A DNA stretch of 64,000 nucleotides from Arthonia radiata (Eukaryota > Ascomycota > Arthoniomycetes > Arthoniales > Arthoniaceae). Shown here piece after piece: positions 12,601 through 56,716 of the stretch (position 1 is its first letter; every line of letters begins with the position of its first letter). The DNA lies in assembly GCA_002989075.1 (NCBI GenBank), contig PSQN01000012.1, forward strand, positions 682,001-746,000, in the 5' to 3' direction. A program made the translations under genes and the position numbers. Below the pieces are notes generated by a model that saw only the letters and a list, made by a program, of their open reading frames with translations, was not told where the DNA came from and ran no database searches.

Positions 12601-13199
12601 GTTCAAGGCGTATGTCTCATGTCACTGACTAAACGTTTCACTATCCTCGAATTCCTCACATCTCAGCTCTTGCTGGCGAGTGAACCCGCATCGGCATCCG
12701 CCGGTATCTCCTCTGTCACTGACTGACTCTGCTCACACTTACTTACCTTCAGTCTTCGACGCAGCCCAGCTTCCGCTGGCGGGTAATCCCACACAACCTT
12801 GCTCTTTAACATCAACACTCTCACTATGATGCACATGAGAAGTCTGAGACTCACCAGCACCCCGCTGACTTGTAGACTCTTCTAGTTGAGCCAATTACGT
12901 CTCGGCCTTGGGATCCGATAAAAGCGCCTAAGGGAGAGTCATTTAGCGGAGTCAGCCACGGATACAATACATCACCTGCAGCGTCTTAGCATACAGGCCT
13001 ACCATTATCTAGGAGTGGTTACACCACCATGCCGACGCGTCCGTCAATCCATCAACGGCCGCAGCAAAGGCCCAGCTACGGCCAACCAGCAACGTCAGCG
13101 CCATCACACGGCTCCACCGGTGGAGACTACTCACAACGTTCAACACCAACTCTCCCGGCGTACGCATCGGCGCCATACAGCGGAAGCCGACCAAGTCTG

Positions 13200-13343
13200 G
13201 CGCCAGCACCATCGTGCGGCTATCCAGGGTACGACATTTTGGAGCAGCCAGCATCAACACACATACCGTACGCGTCAGCGCCAGCACCATCGTACGACTA
13301 TCCAGGGTACGACTCTTCACAGCAGCCGACGTTGTCGGCATAG
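13200..13343 (+). repeat. 78-bp in-frame tandem repeat in copy A
   Basis: Two adjacent units starting at 13200 and 13278 share GCGCCAGCACCATCGT and CTATCCAGGGTACGAC. The period of 78 bases is 26 codons, so the reading frame is kept, giving APAPSxxYPGYD units. Similar units occur in copy C near 22.1-22.3 kb. Confidence 0.75.
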
Positions 13344-14595
13344 GCTCTGATACCGCAGCAATTAGAAATACCGCCGGTTGCGCGTTCCATGGTCGAGACT
13401 GGTACTTTCATTGATGCATTGTTGCCACCCACCACCGTCTCCGTCCCTGCCGAAACCTCCCTATCGATCTACGCGAGACGCCTTTCTCACCGCGGGCAGC
13501 GCACATACGCTCAGTAGCAAAGATAAAGAGGAATATGTGCAACCTTCGCCAAAAGCAGGAACAGCAGTCAATTCACCAGAAAACCGTCATGACCAGTCAC
13601 CTGCTTCTGACAAATCCATTAGCCCTACCTTGGAAATATCGAACGAAACCCCGACACGCAATCAGAGTCGACAAGTGCTACGCTCATAGAGGGTTCCAGA
13701 CAGCGTTAGAAGAAGTCATCGTTGTCGAAGACAGTTGTCAAAAGATGACAGGCATTGCCTTCGGCACTGCCTTCCGTGAAGTCACAGCAACAAGAACGGG
13801 CTGACAAGGAGACGCAAGAGGACGTGCAAGAAGGACATGCCCTCAAGAAACGAAGAATAACAAGTTTGACTACGCGGATTGATTACGGCGTGAACATCCA
13901 AGCCACCGCGGGCGCAGACACAGGCGTGAGCGAATCTGAAGAGGACGAAGCGCGAGCAGCGCCCAGTCGCAAGAGAAAAGACCAAGGTGCTCTGACCGCC
14001 ATCACAAGAGGTCGAGATGCAAGTGCGGTGGATAGCGATGTCGATGTAGAGGGTGCGGGCCAGGTAAGTCTGCAGGAGCGTCGCCACATATGCTATTCCA
14101 CGATTCTACATCATGTTGGAGGTATAACGCCCGAAAACAATCAGACTAGAGATCTTGTTTGGCTATATCGCAATTTTAAGGCGAACGGGGCTCTCAAAGA
14201 CTTACAGCTCACGTCCACAGAAATCGTTATGTTCATCGAATCGATTGCGGTCGTTGACGAGACCCAAGCCCTTGAGTTACTGAAGAACATCTACAAGATC
14301 TTTGGCTATGAGCCGGAACTTGGGGGTTTTCTAGAGTTTACAGACACTGAACATAACCCGTGGGATGTTTCCTAATGCCGATGGTCCGGATGGGCAATGT
14401 CGGTGAGAATATGCGGAAGGCGCTGTCAGATAACGTGCCTTCCCCCGCTACGTTGGCTCATCTCACCCAAAATTTGCCAGCCTCTTTCGCTAGCCATAGA
14501 CTCTCGTCTTCCTCGCATCCTTCTCATCCTGTTACAGTCCTTTTGTACGTAAGTTCCTCATTATACGATGCCGCAGATTCGGCGGTCACCTCTTA

Positions 14596-14760
14596 ATGGC
14601 ACCCTTCCGACCTTTTAGAGTGCCAACTACGACAACACCCCAGCCGCGAAACGTTTTCAACATTCGCTGGATATGTCCGCATTGCAATGAGCGCAATCCG
14701 CTTCAAGGCCCGATCTGCCGGCATTAGTAATGCCAGCAAGAGAGGCCAGCAGTGGTGACT
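14596..14760 (+). pseudogene. Family 2 N-terminal fragment with RanBP2-like zinc finger
   Basis: From the ATG at 14596 the frame reads MAPFRPFRVP, then IRWICPHCNERNPLQG and ICRH, then two adjacent stops (TAG TAA at 14725-14730), then CQQERPAV. The pattern W-x-C-x2-C-x3-N-x6-C fits a RanBP2-type finger, with the fourth Cys five residues on. Copies at 25278 and 29613 start the same way (MAP-x-(K/R)-x-F-K-(V/L)-P). The stop pair fits CAG CAA to TAG TAA by two C-to-T changes. This piece sits inside family 1 copy A. Confidence 0.6.
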
Positions 14761-14916
14761 ACTGCCGCAGCGTTGCCACTCGTCCCAAGAGCGAAGCGCT
14801 CGACGCCACATCTGCTACAACAGGTGCAGGGCAGGGAACAATGCCGGATGGCCAAGCGGAAACCACTACAGACAAAAGATGGCAATACACGCAACTCACC
14901 ATAACTTCAGGCCTCC

Positions 14917-15111
14917 CCAAAGCGAGCACCATCACCCATTGCCGAGGTCTCATCCCCATCGCAAGCACCACCATTCCTTGCTAAGGCCCCTTCTCCGAAG
15001 CCAATACCACCATCTCTTGCCTAGGCCCCGTCCCTAGCCCGGGCAACACCGTTCCTGGGTGAGTCCCCGTCTCCAAAGTTACTACCACCATCCCTTGCTG
15101 CGGCCTCGTCC
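14917..15111 (+). repeat. 39-bp minisatellite, five units
   Basis: Five consecutive 39-base units, each encoding 13 residues of the form P-K-x-x-P-P-S-L-A-x-A-P-S. The units are diverged (for example PKRAPSPIAEVSS and PKLLPPSLAAASS), and one carries an in-frame stop. Period and frame agree, so the repeat arose as coding sequence. Confidence 0.8.
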
Positions 15112-15124
15112 CTGGCGCGGGCAT

Positions 15125-15186
15125 AGAAGGTTCTTGACATTGTCATTCGCGAGAGATCACTATGGGCCAAAGGCTAAGCACGTCGA
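15125..15186 (+). repeat. 62-bp segment duplicated at 15974-16035
   Basis: Starts AGAAGGTTCTTGACATTG and ends at AAGCACGTCGA. It recurs at 15974-16035 at the end of copy A with about a dozen differences. Both encode RRFLTLSFA-x-(D/E)-H-type sequence; in copy A it therefore occurs before block 1 and again after block 2. Confidence 0.75.
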
Positions 15187-15973
15187 AAAGTTGCTTGAAG
15201 CTATTCTGGATAATGTGGCGGCGAATGGAGCGAGTTCTGGCTTCTCGTGCAAAGTCTGCGGAATTCTGGAGCATCATTGGGGACGTGCTATAGGAGCACC
15301 GGCTGGAGGACTTCTGCTCATTTAATGTCTCTACGGTGCCGATGGTGTTGGCAATATGGTTGCTCTGAAACCACTATTCAGAGCGTGTAGAATCATGATG
15401 GTGAGAAATTTCCGCGAGGTTCTTTTTCGCAATCCACGTTCAACTTACGGGCATCTCCATGTCATCTGCGACCATACAGTCTCTCCGAGAGAGCTTGGTT
15501 CATGGATATCGTGGCTCTTGAGCACATCCTCATGGGGGACATTATGGGATACTTGCCCCGACTGGTAGGCTCAACTTGCTCACGAGACATCCAAGTGCGT
15601 TGCTGATGCGTTCGCCAGTTATGGAGCAATGTCCGTCAAGGATGTTGGGGATCGGCAGATATGTACACATGCGTCAGCAAAGCCTCGGAACCCGGGCTCA
15701 GGAAAGGCATCTTCCACAGCCGAACACTCACAAACCATACAGAAGTTGCGCGAACTTTTCCAAGGCGTAAAGTTGCCACGTGTGGATCTCACTCTACGAT
15801 ATCGATGGTCCGTCTTTTTCCTCAAGAGGTCGGGGTTCGGGTCGGCAAGATTCAAGCCGTCACCATCGGCAGCTGAGAAGGGAGATCGTGCATTAAAGCG
15901 TAGGGGCAAGGCATTGGTAGGCCTCGCGCAAGTGGGGCATACCTCTTTGTCCCCCCTTCCATTGGATGTCATT

Positions 15974-16035
15974 AGAAGGTTCTTGACACTGTCGTTTGCA
16001 AAAGAACATCATGGGCTAAAGGCTAAGCGGGTCGA
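15974..16035 (+). repeat. Second copy of the 62-bp segment
   Basis: Partner of 15125-15186; encodes RRFLTLSFAKEHHGLKAKR. In copy B the equivalent (KKHTTLSFVTEYLSK, about 19.5 kb) lies only before block 1, so the second position in copy A is probably a local duplication or the start of a further, lost unit. Confidence 0.7.
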
Positions 16036-16732
16036 TTGATGATCCGTGAGACCTTGCGACAGAGCTGACGATGGGCTAGCTGGGGTGTCGTCTTCGGACG
16101 CCGAGCCTGCGACGCTCGCGGATGTTTGCAAGTCTGCTGCGTCGAGACTACTTGCGTCGCTTGGCGGAGAGTCTTCAAGCTGACAACACCTTCCGCTAAC
16201 GGTGTGTACAAACGGCTCGTCCTCGTTCTTGTCTCGAGTGATCTTGAACCTTGATTTACGCCGCTCAGCCTTTGCTTACACCAGACCTGCCCTCATGCGC
16301 TGTATCGTCTTCTGCGCCGTGATGCGCCGAGAGCAAGTTTGCCTTTGGCAGGCTTGCGCTCAACCGGTGAGAATAAAATAGTATTGCGTTCGTCATAGGC
16401 AGCGGCAAGCGAACAGTTGTCTTGAGATTGATATAACTGCTGGTCGTCTAGTGGAGTTTGCGGCTTCGGCTTGCGCTCCAGAGAGCGGGCTTTTCCGTTT
16501 ATCGGCCATGGAGGAAGATAAGTCGTGGATAAGATTGGATAGGAAACAGTTCAGTTCGTCTAAGCAGTCTTCGTCCTCCTCTTCAGCTTCTACCGGTCCA
16601 ACTTGTTTCTCTGCCTCATCACCTCCTTCACGGGCTTCGAATTGGACCTTGCATCACCGCCTGAGCCCGCCATTGCATTTCTCTCCGTCTTGAACTTCTA
16701 GATCCTTGTCCGCCTCAGTCTGATACTCATGC

Positions 16733-18876: not shown

Positions 18877-20902
18877 GTGAAGAAGCCGCTTTGGTCAAGC
18901 AAAAAGAGAAGAACCACAGGAGTGTCAGCACGGAGTGGACGTGTTCATTATAAGATGGATGCGAAAGACAGCGCGGGTGTATCAGCAGATGATGGTAGTG
19001 AGTATGAAGGAGGGGAAGGTGAACAAGGCGAACAAGGTGGACAAGGTGAAACACAGTTGGCACAAGTACCCCCCAAGCGAAGAAAGACTCAGCAGGCTCG
19101 CGCCCCCCTTCTCCCCCTCTCCCGCCTCCGCCGCCACCAGCCCGAAAAACATGCGTCATGCATCCAGTCCCGGTGGGGGAGAGGTGTCGCTGTTGACTCG
19201 TCCACAACAACTCAGCAGACTACACACAAACACATGTGCCACTCTACGGTAATGTACGAAGGTGGTAGAGCAAGACCACCAGATTACCATGCTCAATTGT
19301 TGGAGTGAGGTGGATTCGAATCATATGTTGAAAGGCATTGAACTCACGCCAGCTGAGGTTGAAACTCTCCTTGAACCGCCCAAAGTCGTCGATGGCGACC
19401 AGTCTATTGAGAGATTGAAGAAAGTCTTTGACATCCTTGGACATCGACTCGAGCTCACAGCGGACAACTCTTTGGCACCGCTCCCAGCTGGTGTTATGAA
19501 GAAGCACACAACATTGTCCTTTGTAACCGAGTATCTGTCCAAAGGGGGAAACAGCCAAGCATTGAAGTCTCCAAGCAAGCTGCAAACTTCATTCGGCACC
19601 ATCATAGATAACATGCTTGACCCCGACCATCCATGCGGACTCAGATGCACTATCTATTTTCGCCTCGATCAATCGTGGCAACAAGCCGTCGGCGGGCGGG
19701 CGTCTGGACCAACGCTCATACAATGCCCTCATGGACATCAAGGTACCGCTAATCTCGCCGCATTGCGTCCCCTGTGCAAAGCTTGCGGAGAGTTGTTTTT
19801 TCAGCTTTTCGTCCAAGAGCTTCAATCGCCCCAAAAGGCCACATTACAGGTGTACTGCAATCACACAATGTCCGCGGAAGAGGTCGGAACTCGGGCGTCA
19901 TGAATGGTGTCGATGTGCCCTTGGAACTTCCTGTGGGATACTGACGAGGCGATGTAAGTATAATGACCACGCTACCGCGTCGAATTTGACTCACCATTCC
20001 TTGAGGCTTCAAGCACTACATATCAAAGATGTTGGTAACAGGAAAGTCTGTGTCGCCCTAAATGCCAAGCCAAGAAAGCTCAGCACTGGTGGTGTACTGA
20101 AGACCTCGAAACCAACAAACTCCGTCTGCGCGATCAGGTTATTGTTCAAAGACGTTCAACTGCCGCAAGTTGACAGCACGCTCCGCTACAGATGGACGAC
20201 CTGGTTTCTCAAACGATTGGGCTGTGGAGAAGAGGAGTTCATGCCGTCTCCGGCTGCGGCAGGGCGAGGAGACCGTGTTGAAAGAGCACAGGAAAAGGAT
20301 GTGGTTAAAGATGGCGTTCGAAAGGTATCACAGTAGTCACGCAGGTGGCAGAGAAAGACGTAGCGCGGCATGAGCCGGGCAGATCCATCCGTACAACAAG
20401 AGACTGCGACGTACGCGAAGACTCGATATTCAGATCTTATTTTGCAGTCGGCAACGATGAACGTAATAGGCTTTGTCTCGGAACACGTGTTCATTCCAAC
20501 ATCCCAGTGTTACTAAGCTGCTTGTCGAATTCCGTCGACATGCTCAACCAACTGAAAGACGGTCAAGTCAAACAACAGTACAGCGACTTTGCACCGAACG
20601 CGCGTAGCATGCCGTTTGTCATGCAACTCAAACAAGAGATGCTGGCTGCGCCGTACCAATTCGTGCACGAAGCCGATTGTCTCGAGCTCTCGATGGCAAT
20701 CCGACGAGCGTCGGAGGTAAGGATTGGTCTAGCGCTGGCACGACATGACACAAACGCGTGGCAGAACGTCACCCTCGAGGCGACATCACAAACTGTTTGC
20801 CATATTGGCAGCGTCGATTACCAGCCAGCACAATCACAGCAGCGGTCTGCTCTGTGGAGAAGGCTGTGCAGATCACGAGGGAGAGGAGAACAGTTACAAT
20901 AG
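18877..20902 (+). pseudogene. Family 1 ('LRYRW') copy B, best preserved copy
   Basis: Parts in order: acidic head (about 18950-19070, KMDAKDSAGVSADDGSEYEG, parallel to copy C); open frame 19262-19903 (213 codons) with GIELTPAEVETLLEPPKVVD, KKHTTLSFVTEYLSK and block 1 (IQCPHGHQGTANLAALRPLC, CKAC, YCNHTMSAEEVGTRAS); a probable intron near 19940-20010; block 2 at about 20010-20330 (DVGNRKVCVALNAKPRK, VDSTLRYRWTTWFLKRLG, MPSPAAAGRGDRV); block 3 at 20345-20902 (YQFVHEADCLELSMAIRR, EVRIGLALARHDTNAW). Block 1 has paired Cys/His spaced like a small zinc site. Fewer breaks than copies A and C, so it could be expressed. Function unknown. Confidence 0.55.
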
Positions 20903-21874: not shown

Positions 21875-23961
21875 ATGCTCCATGCGTCTCGACCACTCAG
21901 GAGGCACGCACTCCAACAAAATCCTTACCACCGTGACGCACTACATTCGGCACCCCGGCAGTCATGGTCACTATTGCACCAGAGCGGCTTCACACCAACA
22001 CTACCAACTCCTGCGGCATACCCACAATGGCCAATGCCACCACCCGTGCCCCTCAACCCCATACTATCATCAAACGACTCAGCATATCAGTACCGCCCGC
22101 AGCAGGCTAAGTCAGCGCTCACGCCGTATGCACCAGCACCGACATTCCGCCAGGGAGGGTACAGCAATTCCCAGCAGCCAAGGTCGGCGCCCATGCCGTA
22201 CACATCAACACCGGCATACGGCTATGGAGGTCTCGACAATACGTAGCAGACAAAGTCGGCGCCCATGCCGTACGAGTTGACATCGTACACCAGAATCCAT
22301 CTAAGCCCGGCGTCAACGTCATCGCGTTACACAGGGTACAACTACTTGCAACAAGCAATGTCAACACGATATTCGTATCGGTCAAAGCCAGCTTCTAAGG
22401 CGTCGACCACACTACCAGATCCCCCCAATCGATCTGCGCGAGATGCCCCTTTTACCGCAGGCACTGTGCACACGCTAGACAGCGACGATGAGCAAGACGA
22501 ATAAGAGTCACCTTCACCAAAGAGGGGAACAACAACAGCTTTGCTACCTGAAGACCGATCACCTGCTTTGACCAAGTCCTCTGGGCATGCTCCTACCACT
22601 TTCTCTGCCATTTCCCACAAAAGTCCAAGTGCTGCGCTTTGAGATGTTAAAAGACAGTCATGCAAAAGCGGGGCACGGCAAGAAGTCTCCCTTGCTGAGG
22701 ACGGGTAGCAAGAGATACAGGCAGAATCGTCGGCGATGTCACAGCTTCGAGGACGAGTGGGTTCAAGAACGCAAGAGGATACACAAGAGATTGCGCAAGA
22801 GGACACTCAAATGGTATTCGCTGAAAAGAAGCGGCAAGACCGACCATACGCGCAGCTAGGGTCCACTACAGCATGGATATCAAATACAGTGCGGGTGCGG
22901 CAATAGACGCGAGCGAGTATGAGGGAGATGGTAGTAAGTCCGAGACTGAGCAATCTCAAGAGAGTCCGTCAGCGCAAGCAGTGCCGAGCGGTAAGAGAAG
23001 GCGACGAGGATGGCGGCGAGACCATTCTGTCACCGTCGACGCCGAAATCAATCAAGGTGCGAGTAAAGGTACAAGAAGGGGTGGTAATAAAGGATAAGAC
23101 TACTATCAGTAGCAGAAAGAAACTAAAGAATGTACGTTCTTGGAGGAGTCATGGATTAGCACAAGCTGCGCAATTAGTACAACGAAAGCAACGGAAGTTA
23201 TCTGAAAGGTTCCCCAGCTTTTTAAAGGTATACAATTGCCGTGTGTGGATCTCACCTTACGGTATTGATGATGTGTCTTTTACTTCCACAAGCTGGGCTT
23301 TGTCTCGAACGACTTCAAACCCTCTCCGTCGGCTGTTGAGAGAGGAGATCGCGCAGTGAGGCGTAACGGTGAACCTCGACTCGAGATCACTGAAGTCGAT
23401 GATGAAAATGTAGTGCAAAGCCAAGCTCCTGCTCTCGCAGATGGAATCATTCGAAACGAAATGATGAGATAGGAGTCTCCAGGCCACGCAATCCGCCCAA
23501 CGCAACACCGTAACACTCTCGAGGAGGCGACATGTCGATCACCACCTCAAGTACGCAACGCCGAGAAACGAAGCAGACTAGGCTTCGAGGTCCGTATCAC
23601 TGGCTTACGGTCGGTAACAACATTTCTTAAGGAGTTGTAAGAAGTTTACGTCAGGCGCCAGTGTGTCACCCTCGTACCAGACGCCGGCTTCACCCCCCTC
23701 AGACTCCAGTTGAACCACCAGATGATGGGTACCCCAATTCAGTTCATGTGCGAACCGGGCCCGCTCGAGCTTTTGTTGGCTATCCGCAGACCGACCGGGG
23801 TGAGGATTGGCCTTGCATTGTCCCCTCGCGACCAAAACCTCTGGGGAAAGGTGGTGCTGGAATACTACTGTGTACAGTTTGATGAGCTGTTCAAAATAGT
23901 AGCTTCGTCGATAACTAGCGCACACAATTGCAGCTGTGACCTGCTATGCAAAAGAAGCTAA
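21875..23961 (+). pseudogene. Family 1 ('LRYRW') copy C, decayed
   Basis: Head at 21875-22504 with repeats (PAPTFRQGGYSNSQQP, SAPMPYTSTPAYGYGG) and TAGTVHTLDSDDE, parallel to copy A. An acidic segment at 22873-23097 (MDIKYSAGAAIDASEYEGDG) is parallel to copy B. Block 2 follows at about 23190-23400 (GIQLPCVDLTLRY, KPSPSAVERGDRAV) and block 3 at 23710-23961 (IQFMCEPGPLELLLAIRR, GVRIGLALSPRDQNLW). Block 1 is missing, so an internal deletion is likely. The upstream flank near 21.77 kb resembles the flank of copy A near 12.77 kb (CAGCT-CCCGC-GG), so the duplicated unit is larger than the coding part. Stops and frame changes are present. Confidence 0.55.
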
Positions 23962-24176
23962 ATACTACGATGTCTGAGAGGTTGAACTTGATTACTTCGT
24001 ATCTGACGAGGACGAGCCGTGCATAAATGGCTCTGCCAGCGTCCGCATGCTATCTTCCCCGTCCTGCGACGAACGAAAGAGCGCTCACCCTACTACCTGA
24101 AACGTCGTTGGCTCTTCTCTTCCATCACTTGGTAAGCAGCTCGCGTCCAAAGTAGAGGATAGAGAGGAAGAAAGGA

Positions 24177-24437
24177 GTGCGCTCCCCGGTGCCCGAGATA
24201 TCACTGAAGCTGCACATTCGTCGACAAACACGCGGTTATTTTCTCGAGACGAGGAGCAAAGCAGCCCGCTCTCCAGTGTTCGAGATGTCGCTTGAGTTTA
24301 CCCGTGGTCAACAAACGAGTGGCTGTTTCCTCGAGACGAGGAGCAAAGCAGTCCGCTCTCCAGTGTCCAAGATGTCGCTGAAGCTTCACCATGGTCAACA
24401 GACGAGCAGCTATCGTCTCAAGACAACATAAACAGCA
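24177..24437 (+). repeat. 87-bp tandem repeat, three units plus a partial fourth
   Basis: Units start at 24177, 24264, 24351 and (partial) 24438. Each is 87 bases (29 codons) and contains GCTCTCCAGTGTxCxAGATG and CGAGACGAGGAGCAAAGCAG. In one frame they encode SRDEEQSSPLSSVRDVA-type peptides, so this is another period that preserves frame. It lies just downstream of copy C and may be its tail. Confidence 0.8.
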
Positions 24438-24589
24438 GCCCTCTTCCCAGTCGCCACGACGACTCCAATACCTTGCCCCCTTCGCTAGCTAAGGGGCAGC
24501 CGGATTAAAGTGATAATCGCCCTCAGCGGATTGCAGCACGGAAGACGATGCGGGGTATTAGAGGAAGTCTAGCCCGCGATTAGAAAGCA

Positions 24590-24880
24590 ATGCCAAAGTT
24601 GCGGAGATGGGACGTGACTGTTTCTCCCAGCAAAAACGAAGAAGACCCCTTTAAATTGAGTCCCCGTTACGTGAAAGGTCACCAAGGTACAGAGAATCGA
24701 CTGAGCGCTACTAGGGAATATAACACAACTGATGAGTTGACTCCAATCTCGGCCCCGGTGCACACACCACCGCGCATGGCCGACGCAGCATTAGATAACG
24801 ATATTCCAGATAGTCCCACGCCAGCTCAACGACGTCTGCGTGGATTGCGGGCTAGCGGGAAGGCGAGCTACTTCTATTAG
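24590..24880 (+). CDS. Hypothetical ORF, 96 residues
   Basis: Open frame MPKLRRWDVTVSPSKNEEDP to a TAG at 24878. It is Pro/Thr-rich with PDSPTPAQRRLRGLRASGK near the end. It lies between the 87-bp repeats and the family 2 copy. Nothing similar is known to me; it may be chance or part of a lost multi-exon gene. Confidence 0.25.
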   Translation: MPKLRRWDVTVSPSKNEEDPFKLSPRYVKGHQGTENRLSATREYNTTDELTPISAPVHTPPRMADAALDNDIPDSPTPAQRRLRGLRASGKASYFY

Positions 24881-25277: not shown

Positions 25278-26216
25278 ATGGCACCATGCAAGCCTTTCAA
25301 GGTGCCAGCAAGAATCACGCCTCGACCACACAACAATGAGCCCAAGTTACACTGGGTATGTGAAAACTGCAACCATCCCAATCCGCTGCAAGGGACTCGA
25401 TGCTTGCACTAGGGGTGCGGACAAATCAGGCCCACAACGACCTCAGCGGACGAGAGCGAGCTCACGCGACGTCTATTCAAGACAATACGATTAGCATCAT
25501 CAGAGAACAAACGCCACATCCCGCATCTCTTGAAACAAGTTAAATGTCGAATCATTAAGGATGAGCCGCGGCGAGTACAAGATTCAAAGAGTCGCTCCTC
25601 AAAAATTTTATGTCCGGAGCCAGTCCGGACGCCTATCGTCCACCCGCATCCATCCAGAAGGACCGCCGACATCGACCATCAAATCGAGTATGACAGCGAG
25701 CCAACGCAAGCCGTGTCGGTCCCGGAAGTTTCAGTGTCTCGCTCAGTGACGGCGGCATTGAGCCGCAACCTCCTACTTCCTCTCGCAGCGTCTACCAGTC
25801 CAGTGGACTTAGAGCACGATCAGTCCGCAGTCTCGCTCGGCCACGAAGCAACGACTCTGCTGCACAATGCTGCCAGCCGAGATGAACCACAACAACAACA
25901 AGACCGTCGCCCAAACTGCCTCGGCCCTGATCTAGTGCTCCCGCCTCTGACACAGACTGACCAGAGCCTGGCTAGTGCGAGCGCTGAGGCCTCTAGTAAT
26001 GAAGACGGCGACAACGGCTCAGGTGAGGATCTTTGTGAAGACGAAGATAACGAGAGAGGCGATAGAGGGGAGCTGGATGCAAGAGAGGAAGAACCGGGGG
26101 AGGAATGTAATGCCGGACCCGAGGATCAGGAAGGAGAAGATGAAGGGGACAGCAACGACCCGGCACAAGAAGACGAAGAGCTTTGGAATCTGCCAATCTT
26201 TGCACGTCTCCCATAA
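25278..26216 (+). pseudogene. Family 2 copy E: RanBP2-like finger plus acidic tail, one in-frame TAG
   Basis: From ATG 25278 a frame of 313 codons runs to the TAA at 26214, broken only by one TAG at 25410-25412. It reads MAPCKPFKVPARITP, LHWVCENCNHPNPLQG, TRCLH, stop, GCGQIRP; then a basic segment, a Ser/Val-rich middle, and an acidic stretch of about 80 residues (EDLCEDEDNERGDRGELD, EDQEGEDEGDSNDP). The finger fits W-x-C-x2-C-x3-N-x6-C with the last Cys shortly after the stop. The GIY-YIG domain and CxxC fingers seen in the copy at 27.7-29.6 kb are absent after 26216. Either truncated and dead, or read through or edited at one codon. Role unknown. Confidence 0.55.
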
Positions 26217-26507
26217 TACATTTAGAACGTGAGTGAGCGCAGCCAGGATGCGTGCGTCGCCACCTTGTTGCAGGCAAGACATTAGTAACCAGAAAGTCTG
26301 TGATTTCTGCTGTGCAACTTTCATCGCCCGCCTCTTGATTGATTGTTCATGAGGAAGAACGCCATTTCTGTGGCGGTAAGACTAGCAAGTCTTACAGAGT
26401 TGAGCGCCCACTGGATCTTCACCCCGTGCTCGGCGCGTCCTACCTCCAATCACTCAACACGCCTCGTTTGCGCACACTTTTCTTTCTTGTGATAGATGGC
26501 GACACCC

Positions 26508-27635
26508 TTAATTGATAGGTAGGGCGGCGTTCAGAGGGATAGCGGTCGATTCTTTGGCGTCGATGGCAGCTCGCACACCCCTATACACGTCATTGACGGC
26601 AGCATTGTCGGAGCGAGTAGCGTAGCCACACGGGGCGTATGTCCCGAACACAATCATCATAATTGTTTCAAACAGGAGAATATACGCCGGATGGAGATCT
26701 TTGTCGAAGGACGCAATCAAGAAGAACTTGACGGAAGTTGATGGGGGCGACGCCTTGTCGCAGGAGCTGGATGTGCTCACCGTGCCAGCACCTCTCAAAT
26801 TAATCGCCTTCTTGCTATTGGTCCTGTGTTGCGTTACACGCCGTCCTACCTTGTTGAATGAGCCCACGTAAAGCCCAATCAGTTGATTAATGAAGACCTT
26901 TGTCTGTGCAAGATATACTGACTCGCTGCAATCCTGTTTGTATACTTTGCGAAGTACATCGAAACTTGGATCCGACCATGCTCTCCGTACGATGATTGAC
27001 CGCGCATCGATCCGTATAGCGGTCGAATACAGTTCCACCAGCAGTTCTTTAGAAACGTATTTCATTAAGTGTCGTACGGGGAAAGTCACCCGGGACTCGT
27101 TGTGATTGACCGATGTTGCTTCTACTATGATTTTGGGACGATCGATAACGCTCGTCAAGAGAGCACAGTATATCTCCTTGTCACCTGGCGGTGATGGCGG
27201 TGGTAGCTGTTCGGCAAATGCCCACGCCGGTTCGCTGGCGCCACTCTTTTCCGCATTGTCGTCCAGCTCGCACTCGTCTTCAGGCTCATCAACATCCTCT
27301 GGACCAGGATTGTACTCGTCATGCGGTAGCCGTCCCTCCTCATGATTGCCGTCGTCGATATCCAGCTCCCTTTCTCCATCGGAATGTCCATCAGCATCGC
27401 CACCAAGGGCCAGAGAGGCCGCAAAGTCGGGAGTGTCAGCCATTGCATTAGTGTCTCTATCAGGGTGCTCATCCGTATCCCTGTCGGGGTCCTCATCGGC
27501 ACTCTCATCTGGATCTTCATCGGCATCTCCATCTAGATCCTCGTCCGCGTGCGGGGCTAAAGAGGCCACAAAGTTTGAGCTACCAGGCACCGCGTCGGGT
27601 GTTGCTTCGATTACTGGAACTGGAAGCGGATGCAT
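26508..27635 (-). CDS. Family 2 copy F1: acidic region plus GIY-YIG-type nuclease domain
   Basis: A 375-residue open frame from the ATG at 27635. Residues 1-140 are strongly acidic with D/E-rich repeats (DEDPDESADEDPDRDTDE). A GIY-YIG-like domain follows: SVYLAQTKVF (GIY position), LIGLYVGSFNKVGRRVTQH (YIG position with the conserved Arg and His), LLFETIMMIVFGT (catalytic Glu position) and PLNAAL (possible final Asn). The protein stops soon after, whereas the neighbouring copy continues into CxxC fingers, so F1 looks shortened at its C-terminus. The same frame extends upstream to 27857 without a clear start. If folded, it would be a metal-dependent endonuclease domain; substrate and cell role are unknown. 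Confidence 0.55.
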   Translation of the reverse strand: MHPLPVPVIEATPDAVPGSSNFVASLAPHADEDLDGDADEDPDESADEDPDRDTDEHPDRDTNAMADTPDFAASLALGGDADGHSDGERELDIDDGNHEEGRLPHDEYNPGPEDVDEPEDECELDDNAEKSGASEPAWAFAEQLPPPSPPGDKEIYCALLTSVIDRPKIIVEATSVNHNESRVTFPVRHLMKYVSKELLVELYSTAIRIDARSIIVRRAWSDPSFDVLRKVYKQDCSESVYLAQTKVFINQLIGLYVGSFNKVGRRVTQHRTNSKKAINLRGAGTVSTSSSCDKASPPSTSVKFFLIASFDKDLHPAYILLFETIMMIVFGTYAPCGYATRSDNAAVNDVYRGVRAAIDAKESTAIPLNAALPIN

Positions 27636-27719
27636 AAGAAGAAGGTCGAGGCAAGTGTGGTGGAGAAGGATTGCTGGGGGCTCTGGCACGGCTCGGGTCG
27701 ATCCGTAGTATGACACACT

Positions 27720-29613
27720 TGACACTCCACCGCCTCGCCAGCCTTCCTCTTCCTTGCCACCTCTCGCTTCGCCAAGTATCTTCCATGCGCGTCTGGACAA
27801 GCCAAAACAAGCTCCCTCGGTGGTAGAACACCGTGTTGTGCCCGGTACAGGTGACACCGAGAGCAGATCAACATATTGAGGGCCACGACGACAACGATGC
27901 CGAACTGTCTCGTCATCTCTGCCTTGATCACTTCAGCCTGACAATAGTCGCAATCAACGACAGACCGATCATCCGCCATCAGCCTCTTGAATCGCCCCCT
28001 CAGCATCCTTCGCGTGACAAAGTCAGCCTTCTGTTTCCCCATGATCTGCACACTCGGCGTCAGCTGGTTCGCACAATTCCGGCACACGATCTCCGTATCG
28101 TTGGTCGGATGCAGTTGTGGATGCAGTGCATTCGTCCAATGGGTGCCAGTGTACATCTCACGACACACAGCGCACGGCGGAACTCCCTTGGCCTTCGCTA
28201 ATAAACCCGCAAGGATGCTACGTCGCTGGGCGAGCCGCGCCCTGTCGTTGATTGCTGGCTGGGCCGGGAGACTGCCGTTTCGTCTGCGGTACGTGTAGCA
28301 AGGATGACATATTCGGGCTGACCCAAGATGGTCCTCCACGTCCAGCGGGAATCTCGGTCTCCCGACCCATGGGACGCTCTGTTGGTCCGCCTGTCGGAAT
28401 CCTCGCCTAAGCAGCAGCGCAGCGTTCAAGGGCGTGACTGTGTGGTCCTCGGCACCGGTCACCGCTCGTGTCTGCTTGTATAATTCGGCCGTGCCGGTAT
28501 TTTCGTAAGGAGTATTGCGACCAGAGTATGAGTACGATCCCAAAATTACCATGACAATGGCCTCATAGAGATATTGGTAGCCCTCGGGAGTGTCTTCTGG
28601 AAATCTGGTCAGAAGAAAGAAGTCTGTGTGTGTGCTTGGCAGCGATGCAAATGTATAAAATCGACCAAACCTCAGTAGATTGCCTGCTCAATCAAAACTC
28701 AGTAGACTGCCTGCTTCTGCTCACCGGCGCCTCGCAAGTCGAAACCTTTTTCTGTGTTGCCGGGCGCGCTCACCCATGTGTTTCGATGACCCCGTGTAAT
28801 TGCCGAGCTCGGGTACGAGCAGATGTCTCTTGGTCAGCGCCGTGTAGACTCCGGGGGTGATGTCGTTGTGCAAGAGCCTTTCGAGGGTGTGAGAGTCCCT
28901 CTCTCTCTTCGCTCACTCTGGAGTAAAGAGGCCTTCGCGCTCTTCAACGTTGTGGACACGTTGAGGTCCAAAAGTCGCTTCATCGAAACCTTTCTGAGCA
29001 GGCATTGCATCCCGCGTGTCATGAGGAAGCCAGAAAGGCACTCGACGTCCGAAATGGTATTCAGTATCGGGCTCGTCTGCTGCACCCAGCTCATCCCCGT
29101 CCGCGTTGTTATCGTCGCCCATCAGCTCATCCTCGTTCGTGTTGCCATTGTCGCTCATCAGCTCATCCTCGTCCGCGTTGCCATCGTCGCCCGACAACCT
29201 GAAGACCGACCCGCTGGCCTCGCCCGACCCGACAGGCGTGAGAGGTGGGGTGCCAAAGTTTGGACAGGGGTAAAGGCCGGCGGCAACACAGGTCCGTTGT
29301 GATCCGCAGACTGACTGTGTGTAGGAAGTAAGGTGGTGTATGATTGATAGACTGGTGACGTGGGAGATGAGAGACGTTTTGTGACCCGGTGACCGACCCC
29401 CAGTCTCTTCCGCAGTGAGACGCCAGAGGAACGCACTGCAGGTCTGCCATCTACTGACACCGCAGGCCTCTCCTGTCTACATTGCTTGTTGCGGCAGATC
29501 GTACCGCGGGGCGGGTTGACTTGCTCACATTCAGAACATGGCCACCAATGTTCACCCAGCGACGGCGAAGCGGTTACAAAGGCGGGCAACTTGAAGAAAC
29601 GAGACGGGGCCAT
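27720..29613 (-). CDS. Family 2 copy G: RanBP2-like finger, acidic region, GIY-YIG domain and GATA-like CxxC fingers
   Basis: Most complete member; exon ends approximate. 29613-29400: MAPSRFFKLPAFVTA and a finger WPCSECEQVNPPRGTICRN, KQC. About 29200-28950: acidic repeats (NADEDELMSDNGNTNEDEL). 28860-28740: GVYTALTKR, LGNYTGSSKHMGERARQH, matching GIY, YIG, Arg and His. After an intron (GTGAGC donor near 28735, acceptor CCAAG near 28642): DFFLLTRF, YLYEAIVMVILGSYSYSG (Glu position) and TPLNAALLLRRGF. 28400-27720: three or more paired-Cys modules (ICHPCYTYRRRNG, CAVC with CRNC, CDYC with ICSRCHLYRAQHGVLPP), the last like a GATA finger. One in-frame TGA near 28913 may be an intron misread or a real break. 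Likely nucleic-acid binding; otherwise unknown. Confidence 0.55.
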
Positions 29614-29824: not shown

Positions 29825-31814
29825 CTAAATTGCTGCATCCCGCCACTTGCGTCGCTTGGTGGCATTCTTGCACGCTGACAATGTCGGTCGGAACGGGTCA
29901 TCCTCGTTCTCATCAGTAGGAATATCGATCCCTTCTTCTTGTAATTTTGCCACTTCTTCGCGATCGTTGGCTATGCCTTTCCTTATGTTCCGCATTGATT
30001 TCTGTGCTGTAGCGCGACGAGGGCGATCAGAGCGACGAGAGCGACGGTAGCTTTGACAGCGCTGGTCTGGTGAAGAAGGCGTGAAATCGGGTTCGATCGA
30101 TTGCTGCTCCTTTGACATAGGAGGCAGCGCTTTGGGGGCAGCGGGTGCGTTGTTGTAGGCTACGGGCACGGACGAGCCTGGCGCGGCTGATGTAGCTGGT
30201 GCCGCGGGCGCGTTGTTGTGGGTTGCGGGTGCGCTGCCAGCCGGTGCACTGCCAGCCGGAGCCGGAGCGCCGACGGACGAGCTGCCAGCGGGCGCTGAAA
30301 CACCTGGCGCAGTTGGAACGTTGTTGTAGCTAGCAGGGGCGCAGCCAGCGGGCGCTGGAGCACCGACTGATGGGCTACCAACAGGCGCTGATGGTACACT
30401 GAATAGACGTCTTTCGTAGTCGCGCCTGTAAACGCACAGAGGACGGTGACAGGAGATGTTCAAAGTCCTGATTTCCCAGACGCCGACTCTCGTTGGTAAG
30501 AGAGGTGTCAGCACGGTCGTTGAACCGATCATCAGTTTCGTCTCCTTCCTCTACCAATATGGGGCCATCAAAATCTTCGCCTTCCTCGCTCTCCTCCACC
30601 GACAAAGGGCCATCCTCGCCGACCGCCTCATCTCCGACTTCCTCAGCCGGGAGGAGCCCTTCTTCATCTTCGCCTCCATCGCCTTCTTCCATTGAAGGAC
30701 AGCCATCTTCACCGATCGCTTCGTCTCCCTCTTTTTCTGCCAGGAGAGACCCGTCTTGATCTCCGCCTTCACTGCCTTCTTCAACAGGAAGACAACCATC
30801 GTCATCATCGCCGTCGAGTACATCTCCTTCCAATTCATCCTCCATCTGTTCGTCTGCGATTCTATCCTTGCCATCAAGCACAGCATCATAAGAGTGAGAC
30901 CACCAAATGGATGTGGCCCATTAAAAAGATCATAGCCATCAAAAACATAGGAGAGGTTCTCATTGTCGGTGTCTGCCATTAATGCAAAGGTATTGACTTC
31001 GTCGACGTCGCTTGGGAATTCGAAGTCCCCACCCCCCTCGGGCTCGATATGCCCATCGCGAGCTTCAGGATCTGCGCCGAGGTCGTGGCTGTGGTCATCC
31101 GCATGCTCACAAGACGCGTCGTTGTCCAGTCGTGCTTGTCCAATGGACGATCTTGGTCCAATGGCCTGCGAAAACGTAATCTTCTCGCTTTCGCCTTGCT
31201 GCTGACGCTCACGTTGTTGTGCAAGCAGTCTTGCTTTTTTCTGGTTGTATGCCCTCCTCTTTGTTTGTTATCGAGCTGGCATTGTCGATGTAGAACTGGA
31301 CAGTGCTCGCGGTTGAACACTAGAAGAAGGCAGGGGTAGGAGTGACTGCGCTCTGACAATATGCTTCTGCCACAGCCCACACCAGCTCTCGTTAGGAAGG
31401 GCGACCCTGGCATCGAAGGGTGGATAGTAGAGCGCCCGGGTCTTTGGGTAGATGTGAGCAGAGTGTCGTACGGCGCATGACCAGCAGAGGAGCACATACA
31501 GCTTCCACGCCGCCCAGTGATAGTACCTAGTCGAACACAGGTCACTTGATATAACCTGTACCAAGTGCCACCTATCCAAAAGACAGTTGTTAGCTGAGGT
31601 GGAATAAGAGTCTTGCATTGCTTATCTGGAACCATAGCACGTCCCTCTTACCGCACGACAGAGGTATGTCCGCATACGCTGACAGCTCCAGTCTCCGTCG
31701 GCGGAGGATCCCGTCGATTGCAAAGTGATCGTTGAGCTGATTGGCACGAGTGCGCCTTCGCTCAGCGGGGCCGTAGAAAGGGAGCGAGCGACGTTCAATC
31801 CAGACAGTGGGCAT
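29825..31814 (-). CDS. Hypothetical multi-exon protein with acidic and Ala/Pro repeats
   Basis: Probable gene running right to left. First exon about 31814-31640: MPTVWIERRSLPFYGPAERR to a GTAAGA donor. A middle part near 31570-31270 (YHWAAWKLYVLLCW, YYPPFDARVALPNESWCGLW) is followed by MADTDNENLSYVFDGYDLF at 30979. An acidic repeat section at 30881-30530 has units like GDEAVGEDGPLSVEE. An Ala/Pro-rich section at 30400-30160 has repeats such as PAGSAPAGSAPATHNNAPA. A basic C-terminus (RRSRRSDRPRRATAQK, then CKNATKRRKWRD) ends at 29825. Exon joins between the parts were not resolved. The composition resembles nuclear regulatory proteins. No family recognised. Confidence 0.4.
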
Positions 31815-47594: not shown

Positions 47595-49060
47595 TTGGAC
47601 ATCAGACTTAGTAAGTGTCTAATATATAACAACTTACAGCTCATTTTCGGGGACATGTTCCCCAAAATCTTCTCCATTATCGACTCTGATCAGGTTATAG
47701 TGATGATGAGTGGCTCCTCGCCAATCCATCCAGTTAGTATGGACTGTTTGATCTTACAGCGAACGTCCTTGTAGTAGACTATGTCGTCTTTGCTGAATAC
47801 TATGGTTTCTTGGTACTGATTGATTTGGGATCGTTGTTAAAACAGTTTAAAGTTAAGGGATATAGTACTACTACTCTTTTAGAAAAGACTGAAAAGGGTC
47901 TATATATGCATATAAACCGTATAGTATGCTAGTCTAGTCAGTAATATTTTTTATAATTACTATACTTTAGTAAGTAATATTTATTAATAAAAAAGAATAG
48001 TAATTTTAACTATCTTCTTTTTACTTTTAAATATTTAGTAAAAGCCTTTACTATACTAGTAGTTCTTATAAATTAAAAGATAATACTACTAATAACTACT
48101 AATAGCTATACTTTTTACGATATACTTTAGTTTTATATCTTTATTTTTACTTTCTTTTAAATTAATTATTATTAATATAGCTATAAATATTACTTATTTA
48201 GTTAAATTAAAGTCTTTTATTTTTTTTATTTAGCTACTAATAGCTATAACTTCTTTAGCTATAAAAGTAGTATTTTCAAAAGTAGTAATAATAACTATTA
48301 TTATTTTTAAGAGCTTTTTTATCTTCTTTAGCTTATGATATATATAATAAAGATACTTATCTATAATTTACTTCTCTTTAGTATATTAGATACTACTAGT
48401 AAAAAGAGTAAGTATTATAGTTAAATTATTTTTTAACTTTACTAGCTTTATTAAATAAAATACTATTTATAATAAAACTAGCTATCTTAGCTATACTATT
48501 ACTAGCTTACTAGTCTTCTTAATAAAAATTTTTAAATTTATTACAATTAAACTACTAAATAAGTATCTTCTTTTTATGTATTAAAAATAGTATTATATAT
48601 TATAAAAAAGTTAGCTTTTTAGCTATTAATAGTAATAAAACTATATAATACTTATTTTTTTTAAAAAATAGCTTATTTATAAACTTCTTATTTATATGTT
48701 CTATTAATACTATAATAAAGCTTTTATAGTAATTATAGCTTATAGTATTTAGTATTTTTATAGTAAAGTTTTTAAGTTTACTAAAAAGCTTAAAATAAAT
48801 AAAATTCATACTATTTTTAATAGTATTTATTTAGTTATTAATATATTATACTATATCTTTATTTAGTAATAATAATTAGTTACTCTTTTTTATAATATTT
48901 TTCAAACTATTTATTTAAGTATATTACTAGTAGTAATAGTAATAGTAATAATATATATTTATAATTAAAACTAATTTTTTAATTTTTTATATACTTTATA
49001 TCTTCTTTTTTATAGCTACTAGTAATTATTTAGTAGTAAGTTTAAATATATTTAATATTT

Positions 49061-49065
49061 TTAAG
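49061..49065. repeat. Target-site duplication, left copy (TTAAG)
   Basis: TTAAG directly before the left LTR. The same five bases follow the right LTR at 56297-56301, supporting a single intact insertion event. Confidence 0.75.
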
Positions 49066-49514
49066 TGTAACGCCGGTCGCTAGATAGACCGAACTAAGGC
49101 TTACTTACCTTATATACTTATTAACCTTAATAGTAGGTATCTTATGTACTAAAGACTAAAAGGTAGGAGAGGCGAGATAGATTATAAAGAGTAAGAAGGG
49201 CTTAACTAAGTAAATAGAAATTAAAATACGTTACTTAAATATAGTTAAAAAACTTATATTCAAATATTAAGTTAATAGACTAAAGTTTATTCTAAGGTTA
49301 GCTATTAGTTTAGCTATATAATTTAAAGTATATAGGTATATTTCTTTATATTTAACGGTTCCGATAGCTTCTCTGTCGCATTATCAGAATTTTATTATAA
49401 TATAGCGACGTCGCTAACGTCGCTATATTAAATTTATTGGGTATTTTATATAATACTCTAATAAGGCTGGCTGCGTTTAGCTTTATACTAGCTAAATGTA
49501 GTAAAACCGTAATA
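49066..49514 (-). repeat. Left LTR (3' LTR of the element)
   Basis: 449 bases starting TGTAACGCCGG. It aligns end to end with 55848-56296 without length change in the parts compared. More AT-rich than its partner. Confidence 0.85.
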
Positions 49515-55500: not shown

Positions 55501-55847
55501 TTCTCGCGCCTACTCTTTATTAAGGTAAATAAAAAGTCGTTAAAATAATACTTAACCTACTTATAAGCGTCTCTATCTATATAAGAGGTAGCAAATAGTA
55601 CTATAGTAGTATTATTTAAAAACTAGTCTTTATAAAATTTAAAGTATATAGCTAGGCGTATTAAATATAAAGTAACTTTAGAACGTTTATTTAAGAAGCT
55701 TTTTTTTATCTTAGTATTAACGTTTAATATCTTACTTGTACTAGCTATTCTGTTAGCTAACCTGTTTGCAGCGTCGCAGCTGTTAGGTACTAAAGTAGTA
55801 AACATAATTAATCTACTTTTTTTACTTTTGTAGTAAGTCTGTTAAAG

Positions 55848-56296
55848 TATAACGCTAGTCGCTAGGTAAACCGAACTAAAGCTTACTTACTTTATATACT
55901 TATCGACCTTAGTAGTAAGTATCTTGTGTACTAGAGACTAAAAGATAGGAGAAGTAAGATAGATTATAAAAAGTAAGAGAGACTTAACTAAGTAAATAAA
56001 AGATAAAGTATATTACTTAAATATAGTTAAGAAACTTATATTAAAATATTAAGTTAATAGACTAAAGTTTATTCTAAGATCGACTATTAGTTTAACTATA
56101 TAGTTTAAGGTATATAAGTATATTTCTCTGTGTCTAACAGTTTTAATAGCTCCTCTGTTGTAATATTGGGATCCTATTGCGATATAGCGACGTCGCCGAC
56201 GTTGCCGAGTCGGAGTCGTTGGGTATGCTGTATGACGCTCTAATGAGGCTAGCTGCGTTCAGCCTTATACTAGCCGGATGTAGTAAGACTGTAACA
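55848..56296 (-). repeat. Right LTR (5' LTR of the element)
   Basis: 449 bases ending GACTGTAACA. It keeps more GC than the left copy (for example GACGTCGCCGACGTTGCCGA near 56188). Confidence 0.85.
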
Positions 56297-56301
56297 TTAA
56301 G
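56297..56301. repeat. Target-site duplication, right copy (TTAAG)
   Basis: Matches 49061-49065 exactly. A 5-bp duplication is usual for Ty3/Gypsy integration. Confidence 0.75.
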
Positions 56302-56716
56302 TATACTAAGTATACTTATAGCACTAAATTTAGCTTTATTATTTTTAATAGTATAGTTATAGCTATTTTCTTTTTAATAAATAAGTTAAATAGTAACAAA
56401 GCTCTATTTTTAATATTTTAAGTCTTTTAAGTAAAAATATACTTTTAAAATAAGTATAAGCTTATTTTAAATAATAAGTAAAGTAGTAAACTTAAAATAA
56501 TAATAATAGTAAGGTAAGGTAGTAATATACATATACAATATCCTTAATTTTAGTATATTCCTTACTATAAACTAGACTAGTATACTATGCGGTTGTGCGC
56601 GTATACGGACCACGTTGTCAGTCTTTTCAAGAAGAGCAGTAGACAGATTGGAATGCAGGATCTGGCTGACAAAACGCTCCCCAAGCGGCCCAGCATACTC
56701 GCCTGTACACGTAGTT

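What the first reader, a model, noticed from the sequence alone, without database searches (positions are those of the whole stretch)
26508..29613. Family 2: GIY-YIG nuclease domain joined to a RanBP2-like finger, acidic repeats and GATA-like fingers
Two adjacent minus-strand copies each show the GIY, YIG, Arg/His and Glu positions of a GIY-YIG domain in the right order. The fuller copy also has an N-terminal W-x-C-x2-C-x3-N-x6-C finger, D/E-rich repeats and several C-x2-C pairs after the nuclease part. I know no named family with this order. A nuclease with two kinds of zinc finger in a repeated, decayed accessory family could be a selfish or DNA-targeting element, or a genome-defence gene.
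Basis: partly seen in the sequence, partly recalled or inferred. Interest (0 to 1): 0.75.

Follow-up and report, generated by a model that had tools for sequence, protein, structure and literature searches.

The report
Relic fungal DNA-cutting, zinc-finger gene family
The stretch holds two neighbouring, mostly broken fungal genes that once encoded a probable DNA-cutting (GIY-YIG) enzyme followed by a row of zinc fingers, an uncommon combination best compared with a plant DNA-nicking regulator; the extra front finger is not proven to belong to the same protein.

Summary
Two adjacent minus-strand copies carry GIY, YIG, Arg/His and Glu elements in order; two more partial copies lie on other contigs. 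Copies match at protein level (Glu-helix part, E 1e-12 to 1e-16) with codon-position identity near 0.6/0.6/0.3. Pfam's GIY-YIG model finds the C4 copy at E 2e-4, just under cut-off, and window copy 1 at E 0.06-0.33. One of three family profiles ranks T4 endonuclease II first in the PDB (E 0.023); the other two do not. AlphaFold2 failed (pLDDT 38). Cysteine-pair (GATA-like) fingers follow in frame: four in C4, two whole and two half in copy 2. The RanBP2-like front finger was found three times, all in this window; only one is near a nuclease copy, in another frame, so that join is unproven. No copy is plainly intact. I found no reverse transcriptase, terminal repeats or shared flanks, so the selfish-element idea has no positive support. 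Nearest analogue: plant EFFECTOR OF TRANSCRIPTION proteins (GIY-YIG plus zinc-binding repeats). Reading: relics of an unnamed nuclear family of finger-tethered GIY-YIG nickases.

The parts
26511..26999 (-). Copy 1, GIY-YIG-like region in one open frame (VY, YVG, R/H, third strand, Glu helix, PLNAALP), ending in a stop
   Evidence: PF01541 E 0.06, below cut-off
27000..27570 (-). Copy 1, acidic (D/E-rich) stretch upstream in the same open frame (frame 26511-27932)
26304..26534 (-). Copy 1, PLNAALP and, past the stop, a relic of the first C-terminal finger with further stops
   Evidence: HMM E 1.7e-11, not in the training rows
28748..28912 (-). Copy 2, GIY ... YIG ... R-x3-HR part
   Evidence: no Pfam hit by itself
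28878..28916 (-). 39-nt GTGAGC...AG stretch holding the in-frame stop at 28915; short for an intron
28671..28724 (-). 54-nt GTGAGC...GAG stretch holding stops 28723 and 28690; candidate intron or decay
28409..28670 (-). Copy 2, RFYTFAS motif, third strand and Glu helix through PLNAALL
   Evidence: RFYxFAS..TDF shared with C4, 0 of 2000 shuffles
27614..28408 (-). Copy 2, C-terminal cysteine-pair array (2 whole, 2 half GATA-like fingers), same frame as the Glu helix
   Evidence: (E 7.7e-9 to C4 copy)
28916..29240 (-). Copy 2, acidic stretch with 36-bp tandem repeats (29087-29192)
29446..29613 (-). RanBP2-like front finger, in another frame from the acidic and nuclease parts
25278..26213 (+). Second front finger followed by an acidic stretch in the same frame (one stop); no nuclease follows
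14596..14763 (+). Third front finger, with stops
   Evidence: (Zn_ribbon_RanBP E 0.0033, below cut-off)
29828..30127 (-). Tail of neighbour gene X upstream of the copy-2 finger
24506..24793 (+). Second copy of the gene X tail, upstream of the 25.3-kb finger
   Evidence: (score 101, 0 of 1000 shuffles)
16195..16350 (-). Third, weaker gene X tail relic
   Evidence: E 7e-6, not in the training rows

Best explanation
These are relics of a small, old family of nuclear fungal genes for an enzyme with a GIY-YIG DNA-cutting domain followed by an array of about four GATA-like (C-x2-C ... C-x2-C) zinc fingers. Inferred mechanism: the fingers hold the protein on DNA and the GIY-YIG domain nicks or cuts a strand nearby, as in other modular GIY-YIG enzymes. 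In the window, two copies lie in tandem, and a neighbour gene (X) plus front finger recurs in opposite orientation, so the locus grew by local duplication and then decayed. Shown: homology among copies, past protein-level constraint, order of the active-site elements, fingers in frame with the Glu helix, disruptions. Inferred: nuclease activity, DNA targeting, biological role, fungal host.
For: Glu-helix parts match at E 1e-12 to 1e-16. Codon-position identity is 0.60/0.60/0.29, 0.54/0.63/0.30 and 0.60/0.63/0.41 over 70 codons in three pairs. The distance from Glu helix to LNAAL is 46 codons in copies 1, 2 and C13, and 50 to the matching LNSAW in C4, across a stop (positions). PF01541 hits the C4 piece at E 2e-4, 22.0 bits against a 22.6 cut-off. 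The A3 profile's best PDB hit of 177,635 sequences is T4 endonuclease II, E 0.023, with YTGS..GKR..HR aligned to YIGK..RKR..YR. The C4 fingers' top four PDB hits are GATA1, AreA (twice) and GATA3, E 0.07-0.28. C4 has four complete cysteine-pair fingers in a 313-aa frame, the first with C-x4-C.
Against: No profile hit passes a curated cut-off, and none covers the GIY Tyr or the Glu. Copy 2's own nuclease piece gives no Pfam hit. Profile A2 found no GIY-YIG chain (best were kinesins). Profile A6 ranks T4 endonuclease II seventh, E 0.54, behind unrelated chains. The single C4 piece hits ribosomal L20, not a nuclease, in the PDB. A read-through of the C4 domain scored lower, E 8e-4, over the same part. 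AlphaFold2 gave pLDDT 38. NCBIfam and PHROGs gave no nuclease hit. For the fingers, Pfam ranks ADD_ATRX (E 0.16) above GATA (E 2.6) in C4 and zf-UDP and zf-BED (E 0.02-0.05) in copy 2, none over cut-off.
Confidence: 0.7

Rival explanations
1. Copy 2 is a living gene: the in-frame stops lie in short introns and the front finger is its first exon, giving the full finger-acidic-nuclease-finger protein the first reader proposed. (Compatible with the family reading above; it differs on decay and on the front finger.)
For: All three internal stops fall inside stretches beginning GTGAGC and ending AG, both a multiple of three long. The 25.3-kb relative has a front finger and acidic stretch in one frame, past one stop. 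Copy 1 has acidic stretch and nuclease in one open frame.
Against: One stretch is only 39 nt; the 54-nt one ends in GAG, a weak acceptor (intron preferences recalled). The first finger lacks its first cysteine pair and the fourth lacks its second half. The finger-to-acidic junction needs a splice that I could not pin down. The other two front fingers have stops.
Confidence: 0.2
2. A selfish or mobile element in which the finger-tethered nuclease cuts its target for insertion.
For: GIY-YIG domains are frequent in mobile elements (PMC1564403, passages). Four copies on three contigs. The X-plus-finger pair is repeated in opposite orientation.
Against: No reverse transcriptase, transposase or integrase hit in the 26 window fragments scanned, which include 24 of the 80 stop-to-stop frames of 130 aa or more listed. 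No shared DNA among window, C13 and C4 loci. Inverted repeats are short, imperfect and inconsistent. Copies are old, about 40% identical.
Confidence: 0.12
3. A mitochondrial GIY-YIG homing endonuclease moved to the nucleus, as reported in Ustilago maydis (PMC7593156, abstract and outline).
For: It is a known route for GIY-YIG genes into fungal nuclear DNA.
Against: G+C here is 51-57%, like most of the window. Zinc-finger arrays rather than NUMOD domains; no NUMOD hit. Codon-position pattern shows constraint after the copies diverged.
Confidence: 0.03
4. The GIY-YIG resemblance is chance; the family is an unrelated zinc-finger protein.
For: All hits are below curated cut-offs and depend on the profile used; none covers GIY or Glu. 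The fold prediction failed.
Against: Pfam E 2e-4 and one first PDB rank both fall on the predicted superfamily and align the predicted YIG and Arg residues.
Confidence: 0.12

Closest known systems
Plant EFFECTOR OF TRANSCRIPTION (ET) proteins (PMC6585611, passages)
   Same: GIY-YIG domain (single-strand cleavage reported for Arabidopsis ET2) followed by cysteine-rich zinc- and DNA-binding repeats; a neighbouring tandem copy (ET3) that lacks the C-terminal repeats, much like copy 1.
   Different: Reported as exclusively plant; ET repeats are not C-x2-C/C-x2-C GATA-like fingers as far as I recall (not tested); no acidic stretch or front finger is mentioned in the passages I saw.
T4 endonuclease II (PDB 2wsh)
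   Same: Best PDB match of profile A3; YIG and Arg line up.
   Different: Phage enzyme, 143-residue chain, no zinc-finger array (recalled); not the best match of profiles A2 and A6.
Slx1 structure-specific nuclease (Slx1-like gene of this genome, L001, C11)
   Same: GIY-YIG domain, PF01541 E 2.9e-17; the Slx1 name is my reading of its sequence.
   Different: The only place over Pfam's cut-off in this genome; the relic family is far more diverged and has a finger array.
GATA zinc finger (GATA1, AreA)
   Same: Last C4 finger: second half LCTACNMFWRQHG; top PDB hits of the C4 array.
   Different: Below Pfam cut-off (18.9 of 26.8 bits; 8.1 bits); loop between cysteine pairs longer.
Penelope-like elements
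   Same: GIY-YIG nuclease in eukaryotic nuclear DNA.
   Different: No reverse transcriptase found in the fragments scanned.

Membership tests
GIY-YIG nuclease superfamily | Tyr of GIY, YxG, Arg (and His) on the first helix, catalytic Glu, in order | tested here: met
   Present in copies 1 and 2 by inspection; in C4 across a stop and a one-base change of frame; C13 keeps only the third strand and Glu helix. GIY Tyr and Glu lie outside the profile matches.
GIY-YIG nuclease superfamily | Profile match above the curated cut-off | tested here: inconclusive
   Best 22.0 bits against 22.6, E 2e-4; copy 1 E 0.06-0.33; copy 2 piece none.
GIY-YIG nuclease superfamily | Three-stranded sheet fold | tested here: inconclusive
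   AlphaFold2 with 3 rows, pLDDT 38.2.
RanBP2-type zinc finger | W-x-C-x2-4-C-x3-N-x6-C-x2-C (recalled) | tested here: not met
   Last pair is C-x4-C in all three copies; Zn_ribbon_RanBP E 0.0033, 17.1 of 27 bits, for the 14.6-kb copy only; zf-tcix E 3.7e-5, 23.6 of 31.2 bits, for the 29.6-kb copy; no hit for the 25.3-kb copy.
GATA-type zinc finger | C-x2-C-x17-18-C-x2-C (recalled) | tested here: not met
   Loops in C4 are about 20-40 residues; PF00320 18.9 of 26.8 bits, 8.1 bits; called GATA-like only.
Plant EFFECTOR OF TRANSCRIPTION | GIY-YIG followed by ET repeats, in plants | not tested
   ET repeat pattern not compared by sequence; the host here is unnamed and a fungus only by my inference from genome size and gene content.
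Penelope-like element | Reverse transcriptase joined to GIY-YIG | tested here: not met
   No reverse transcriptase hit among the 26 window fragments scanned; small decayed pieces were not scanned.
Mitochondrial homing endonuclease | AT-rich, NUMOD domains | tested here: not met
   G+C 51-57%; no NUMOD hit.

The most novel reading that the evidence does not exclude
An undescribed fungal family of GIY-YIG nickases carrying a long GATA-like finger array, in some members with an acidic stretch and a RanBP2-like front finger, working with a co-duplicated partner gene X: a fungal counterpart, reached independently, of the plant ET regulators, acting in the nucleus on chosen DNA sites (regulation, demethylation or genome defence).
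Probability: 0.2. Interest if true: 0.65.

Novelty: new variant of a known kind. Interest (0 to 1): 0.42.

Why it matters
Modular nucleases that pair a cutting domain with zinc fingers are engineered in laboratories but uncommon in nature. A fungal family with that build, parallel to the plant ET proteins, would give a natural example and could show how fungi cut or nick chosen nuclear DNA sites. Here the copies are mostly broken, so the value is as a lead to intact orthologues in other fungi.

Tried and rejected
Tried without result: relatives in viral contigs (5 and 30 stretches matched patterns) and genome contigs (68 stretches): no relative was confirmed. tblastn of the C4 piece in phages: 15 of 19 records were listed, best E 0.3, annotated as cytosine methylases, integrases or hypothetical proteins, none as GIY-YIG. 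PHROGs and NCBIfam: no nuclease. A search with the Slx1-like gene for sequences to build a reference profile gave one viral locus and was dropped. AlphaFold2 failed, so no fold search was made; the second structure job was not used. The pattern for PLNAALP found 3 places, with 1 in the reversed control: two are known copies; the third, on C3, was not followed up. The C1 place at E 0.12 showed no GIY-YIG or finger context in my reading of its three forward frames and was dropped; the C12 place at E 0.08 was not followed up. Two weak protein matches of L010 to window 36.6 and 43.8 kb (E 0.003 and 0.001), not next to the copies, were not followed up.

Considered and rejected: a frameshift in copy 2 (my first reading while working, replaced); an intron of about 100 nt there (it would remove the RFYTFAS motif shared with C4); repeat-induced point mutation as the cause of the stops (indices in the region are like most of the window); a mitochondrial or Penelope origin.

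Literature: no paper held all of GIY-YIG, fungi, GATA, zinc finger. One paper held GIY-YIG and RanBP2, on prokaryotic EVE/DCD domains, seen as a listing only. None of the 20 listed of 48 held GIY-YIG. Other listings were scanned by title and start of abstract: 20 of 27, 10 of 85, 25 of 71, 15 of 21, 15 of 716. Passages were seen in PMC1564403, PMC6585611, PMC4469406, PMC4522978 and PMC5635595; abstract and outline in PMC7593156. Subscription papers and fungal protein databases were not searchable.
Full report
Setting. The window is bases 682001-746000 of contig C10 of an unnamed 33.5-Mb, 16-contig genome, which I take to be fungal (inference). Towards its ends it has ordinary genes: a GDS1 winged-helix gene, an FAD oxidoreductase, a methyltransferase, ETF-QO, an alcohol dehydrogenase and an M28 peptidase. 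Between about 11.8 and 33 kb the fragments scanned show no Pfam domain over cut-off, and the stretch is rich in partial repeats. The finding lies inside it.

What is there. On the minus strand, copy 2 runs from 29.6 to 27.6 kb and copy 1 directly follows, from about 27.6 to 26.3 kb. Both carry in order a (G)VY, a Y[TV]G, an Arg/His helix (ERARQHR, RRVTQHR), a third strand (FFLLTRF, FFLIASF) and a Glu helix (YEAIVMVILG, FETIMMIVFG), then PLNAAL. The whole-genome search gives two more, partial copies, on C4 (L011) and C13 (L010). Further protein queries and a motif pattern gave no other convincing nuclease copy; weak places on C1, C3 and C12 were not shown to belong, and the tool calls its counts lower bounds. 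The only GIY-YIG place that Pfam's model finds in the genome is a Slx1-like gene on C11 (the name is my reading of its sequence).

Is it more than chance? Glu-helix regions match at 40% over 78 aa, E 1.1e-12 (copy 1, copy 2), 41% over 90 aa, E 1.6e-16 (copy 2, C13) and 40% over 80 aa, E 5.6e-14 (copy 1, C13); the GIY-YIG halves of copies 1 and 2 alone reach only E 0.005. Identity by codon position over 70 codons is 0.60/0.60/0.29, 0.54/0.63/0.30 and 0.60/0.63/0.41, the mark of past selection on the protein. The spacing from Glu helix to LNAAL is 46 codons in copies 1, 2 and C13, and 50 to LNSAW in C4 (positions). A motif RFYxFAS...TDF before the third strand is shared by copy 2 and C4 (local score 46, reached in 0 of 2000 shuffles).

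Is it GIY-YIG? For: Pfam PF01541 hits the C4 piece at E 2e-4, 22.0 bits against a cut-off of 22.6, and copy 1 at E 0.33, 0.088 and 0.06 depending on the crop. The profile of alignment A3 ranks T4 endonuclease II first of 177,635 PDB sequences, E 0.023, with the YIG and Arg positions aligned. Against: copy 2's piece has no hit; profile A2 found none; profile A6 put endonuclease II seventh at E 0.54 behind unrelated chains; the single C4 piece hit ribosomal L20; the C4 read-through gave E 8e-4 over the same part, YIG to just past His; PHROGs and NCBIfam were silent. No match covers the GIY Tyr or the Glu, which rest on order and conservation among the copies. I put GIY-YIG homology at about 0.85.

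The fingers behind the nuclease. In copy 2 the Glu helix and the cysteine pairs are in one 358-aa open frame, so this join does not depend on splicing. In C4 they share a frame too, past one stop. The pairs are regular: C4 has four complete fingers (24/29-52/55, 97/100-123/126, 164/167-208/211, 255/258-279/282; the first opens with C-x4-C); copy 2 has two complete and two half fingers; C13's held part has one complete and one half. The C4 array's top four PDB hits are GATA1, AreA (twice) and GATA3, E 0.07-0.28, followed from E 0.33 by chains of unrelated name and one more AreA entry at E 1. PF00320 scores its last finger at 18.9 bits against 26.8. But in Pfam's own ranking ADD_ATRX (E 0.16) comes above GATA (E 2.6) for C4, and zf-UDP and zf-BED (E 0.02-0.05) lead for copy 2. 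I therefore call them GATA-like, not GATA fingers. Past its stop, copy 1 keeps a relic of the first finger (E 1.7e-11, not in the profile's training rows).

The front finger. W-x-C-x2-C-x3-N-x6-C-x4-C preceded by MAP-[SCF]-[RK]-[FP]-F-[KR]-[LV]-P was found three times, all in this window: minus 29.6 kb, plus 25.3 kb, plus 14.6 kb. The three are clearly related (scores 102, 119, 146; 0 of 1000 shuffles each). The family match is weak: zf-tcix E 3.7e-5 for the first, Zn_ribbon_RanBP E 0.0033 for the third, none for the second; all below cut-off. At 25.3 kb the finger is followed in the same frame, past one stop, by an acidic stretch, but no nuclease follows. At 29.6 kb the finger's frame differs from that of the acidic and nuclease part. 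In copy 1 the acidic and nuclease parts share one open frame but the pattern search found no front finger next to it. So finger-acidic and acidic-nuclease are each seen, but never all three in one frame.

Are the genes broken? Copy 1: a stop after PLNAALP, then a relic with further stops. C4: a stop in the GIY-YIG loop, a one-base change of frame before the Glu helix and a stop before the fingers. C13: no GIY/YIG half detected and a stop inside the first finger. Copy 2: one frame of 622 codons (29476 to 27611, final stop included) with internal stops at 28915, 28723 and 28690, all within GTGAGC...AG stretches of 39 and 54 nt. The 54-nt stretch could be an intron with a weak GAG acceptor; the 39-nt one is short for that (recalled expectation). 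Copy 2's first and fourth fingers are incomplete. I lean to decay, but a living copy 2 is not excluded.

Surroundings and mobility. A neighbour, gene X, whose tail lies just upstream of the copy-2 finger (30127-29828), recurs upstream of the 25.3-kb finger in the opposite orientation (score 101, 0 of 1000 shuffles), with a third weaker relic at 16.3 kb (E 7e-6). So X plus finger has been duplicated as a pair. I found no shared DNA among the window, C13 and C4 loci and no consistent terminal inverted repeats. No reverse transcriptase, transposase or integrase was hit in the 26 window fragments scanned; these include 24 of the 80 frames of 130 aa or more listed, so small or decayed pieces could be missed. 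The region is not RIP-mutated, unlike the block at 48-56.5 kb.

Comparison. A survey of the superfamily lists UvrC/Cho, homing and restriction enzymes, Penelope, COG1833, COG3680 and Slx1 types and, in the passages I saw, no fungal finger-array family (PMC1564403). The nearest architecture I found is the plant EFFECTOR OF TRANSCRIPTION proteins: GIY-YIG, with single-strand cleavage reported for Arabidopsis ET2, plus C-terminal zinc- and DNA-binding repeats, and an adjacent tandem copy that lacks those repeats (PMC6585611, passages). That is a likeness of design; I did not test sequence membership, and the paper calls ETs exclusively plant.

Verdict.

Noticed in passing
window 13100-16040, 18900-20900, 22100-23950 (+) and 56750-57400 (-): Another decayed family (Family 1) in four partial copies, about 40-49% identical at protein level in its best part, no Pfam match over cut-off for the pieces scanned; the whole-genome search with one 106-aa piece found it only in this window.
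   Followed up: partly
window 14321-15098: In the 14-kb Family 1 copy about 780 bp holding a front finger separates parts that are adjacent in the 19-kb copy (19456/19472), so a finger piece may have been inserted there or lost in the other.
   Followed up: no
window 48000-56500: AT-rich block (about 15-28% G+C up to 56 kb) with strong RIP indices (TA/AT 1.62, substrate 0.28) and two direct repeats of about 300-456 bp (49.05 and 55.84 kb), like a RIP-mutated LTR element.
   Followed up: no
L011:6538-7283: Diverged tandem repeats (75% over 532 bp) upstream of the C4 copy; nearby frames look like protein-kinase pieces by eye, but Pfam gave no hit for the two fragments scanned there.
   Followed up: partly
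L010:2675-8095: The C13 relic lies between a protein kinase gene (Pkinase plus Pkinase_C) and an ORF with a weak DUF6590 match (E 0.0014, below cut-off).
   Followed up: no
window 24164-24451: 87-bp tandem repeats just upstream of the gene X tail relic.
   Followed up: no
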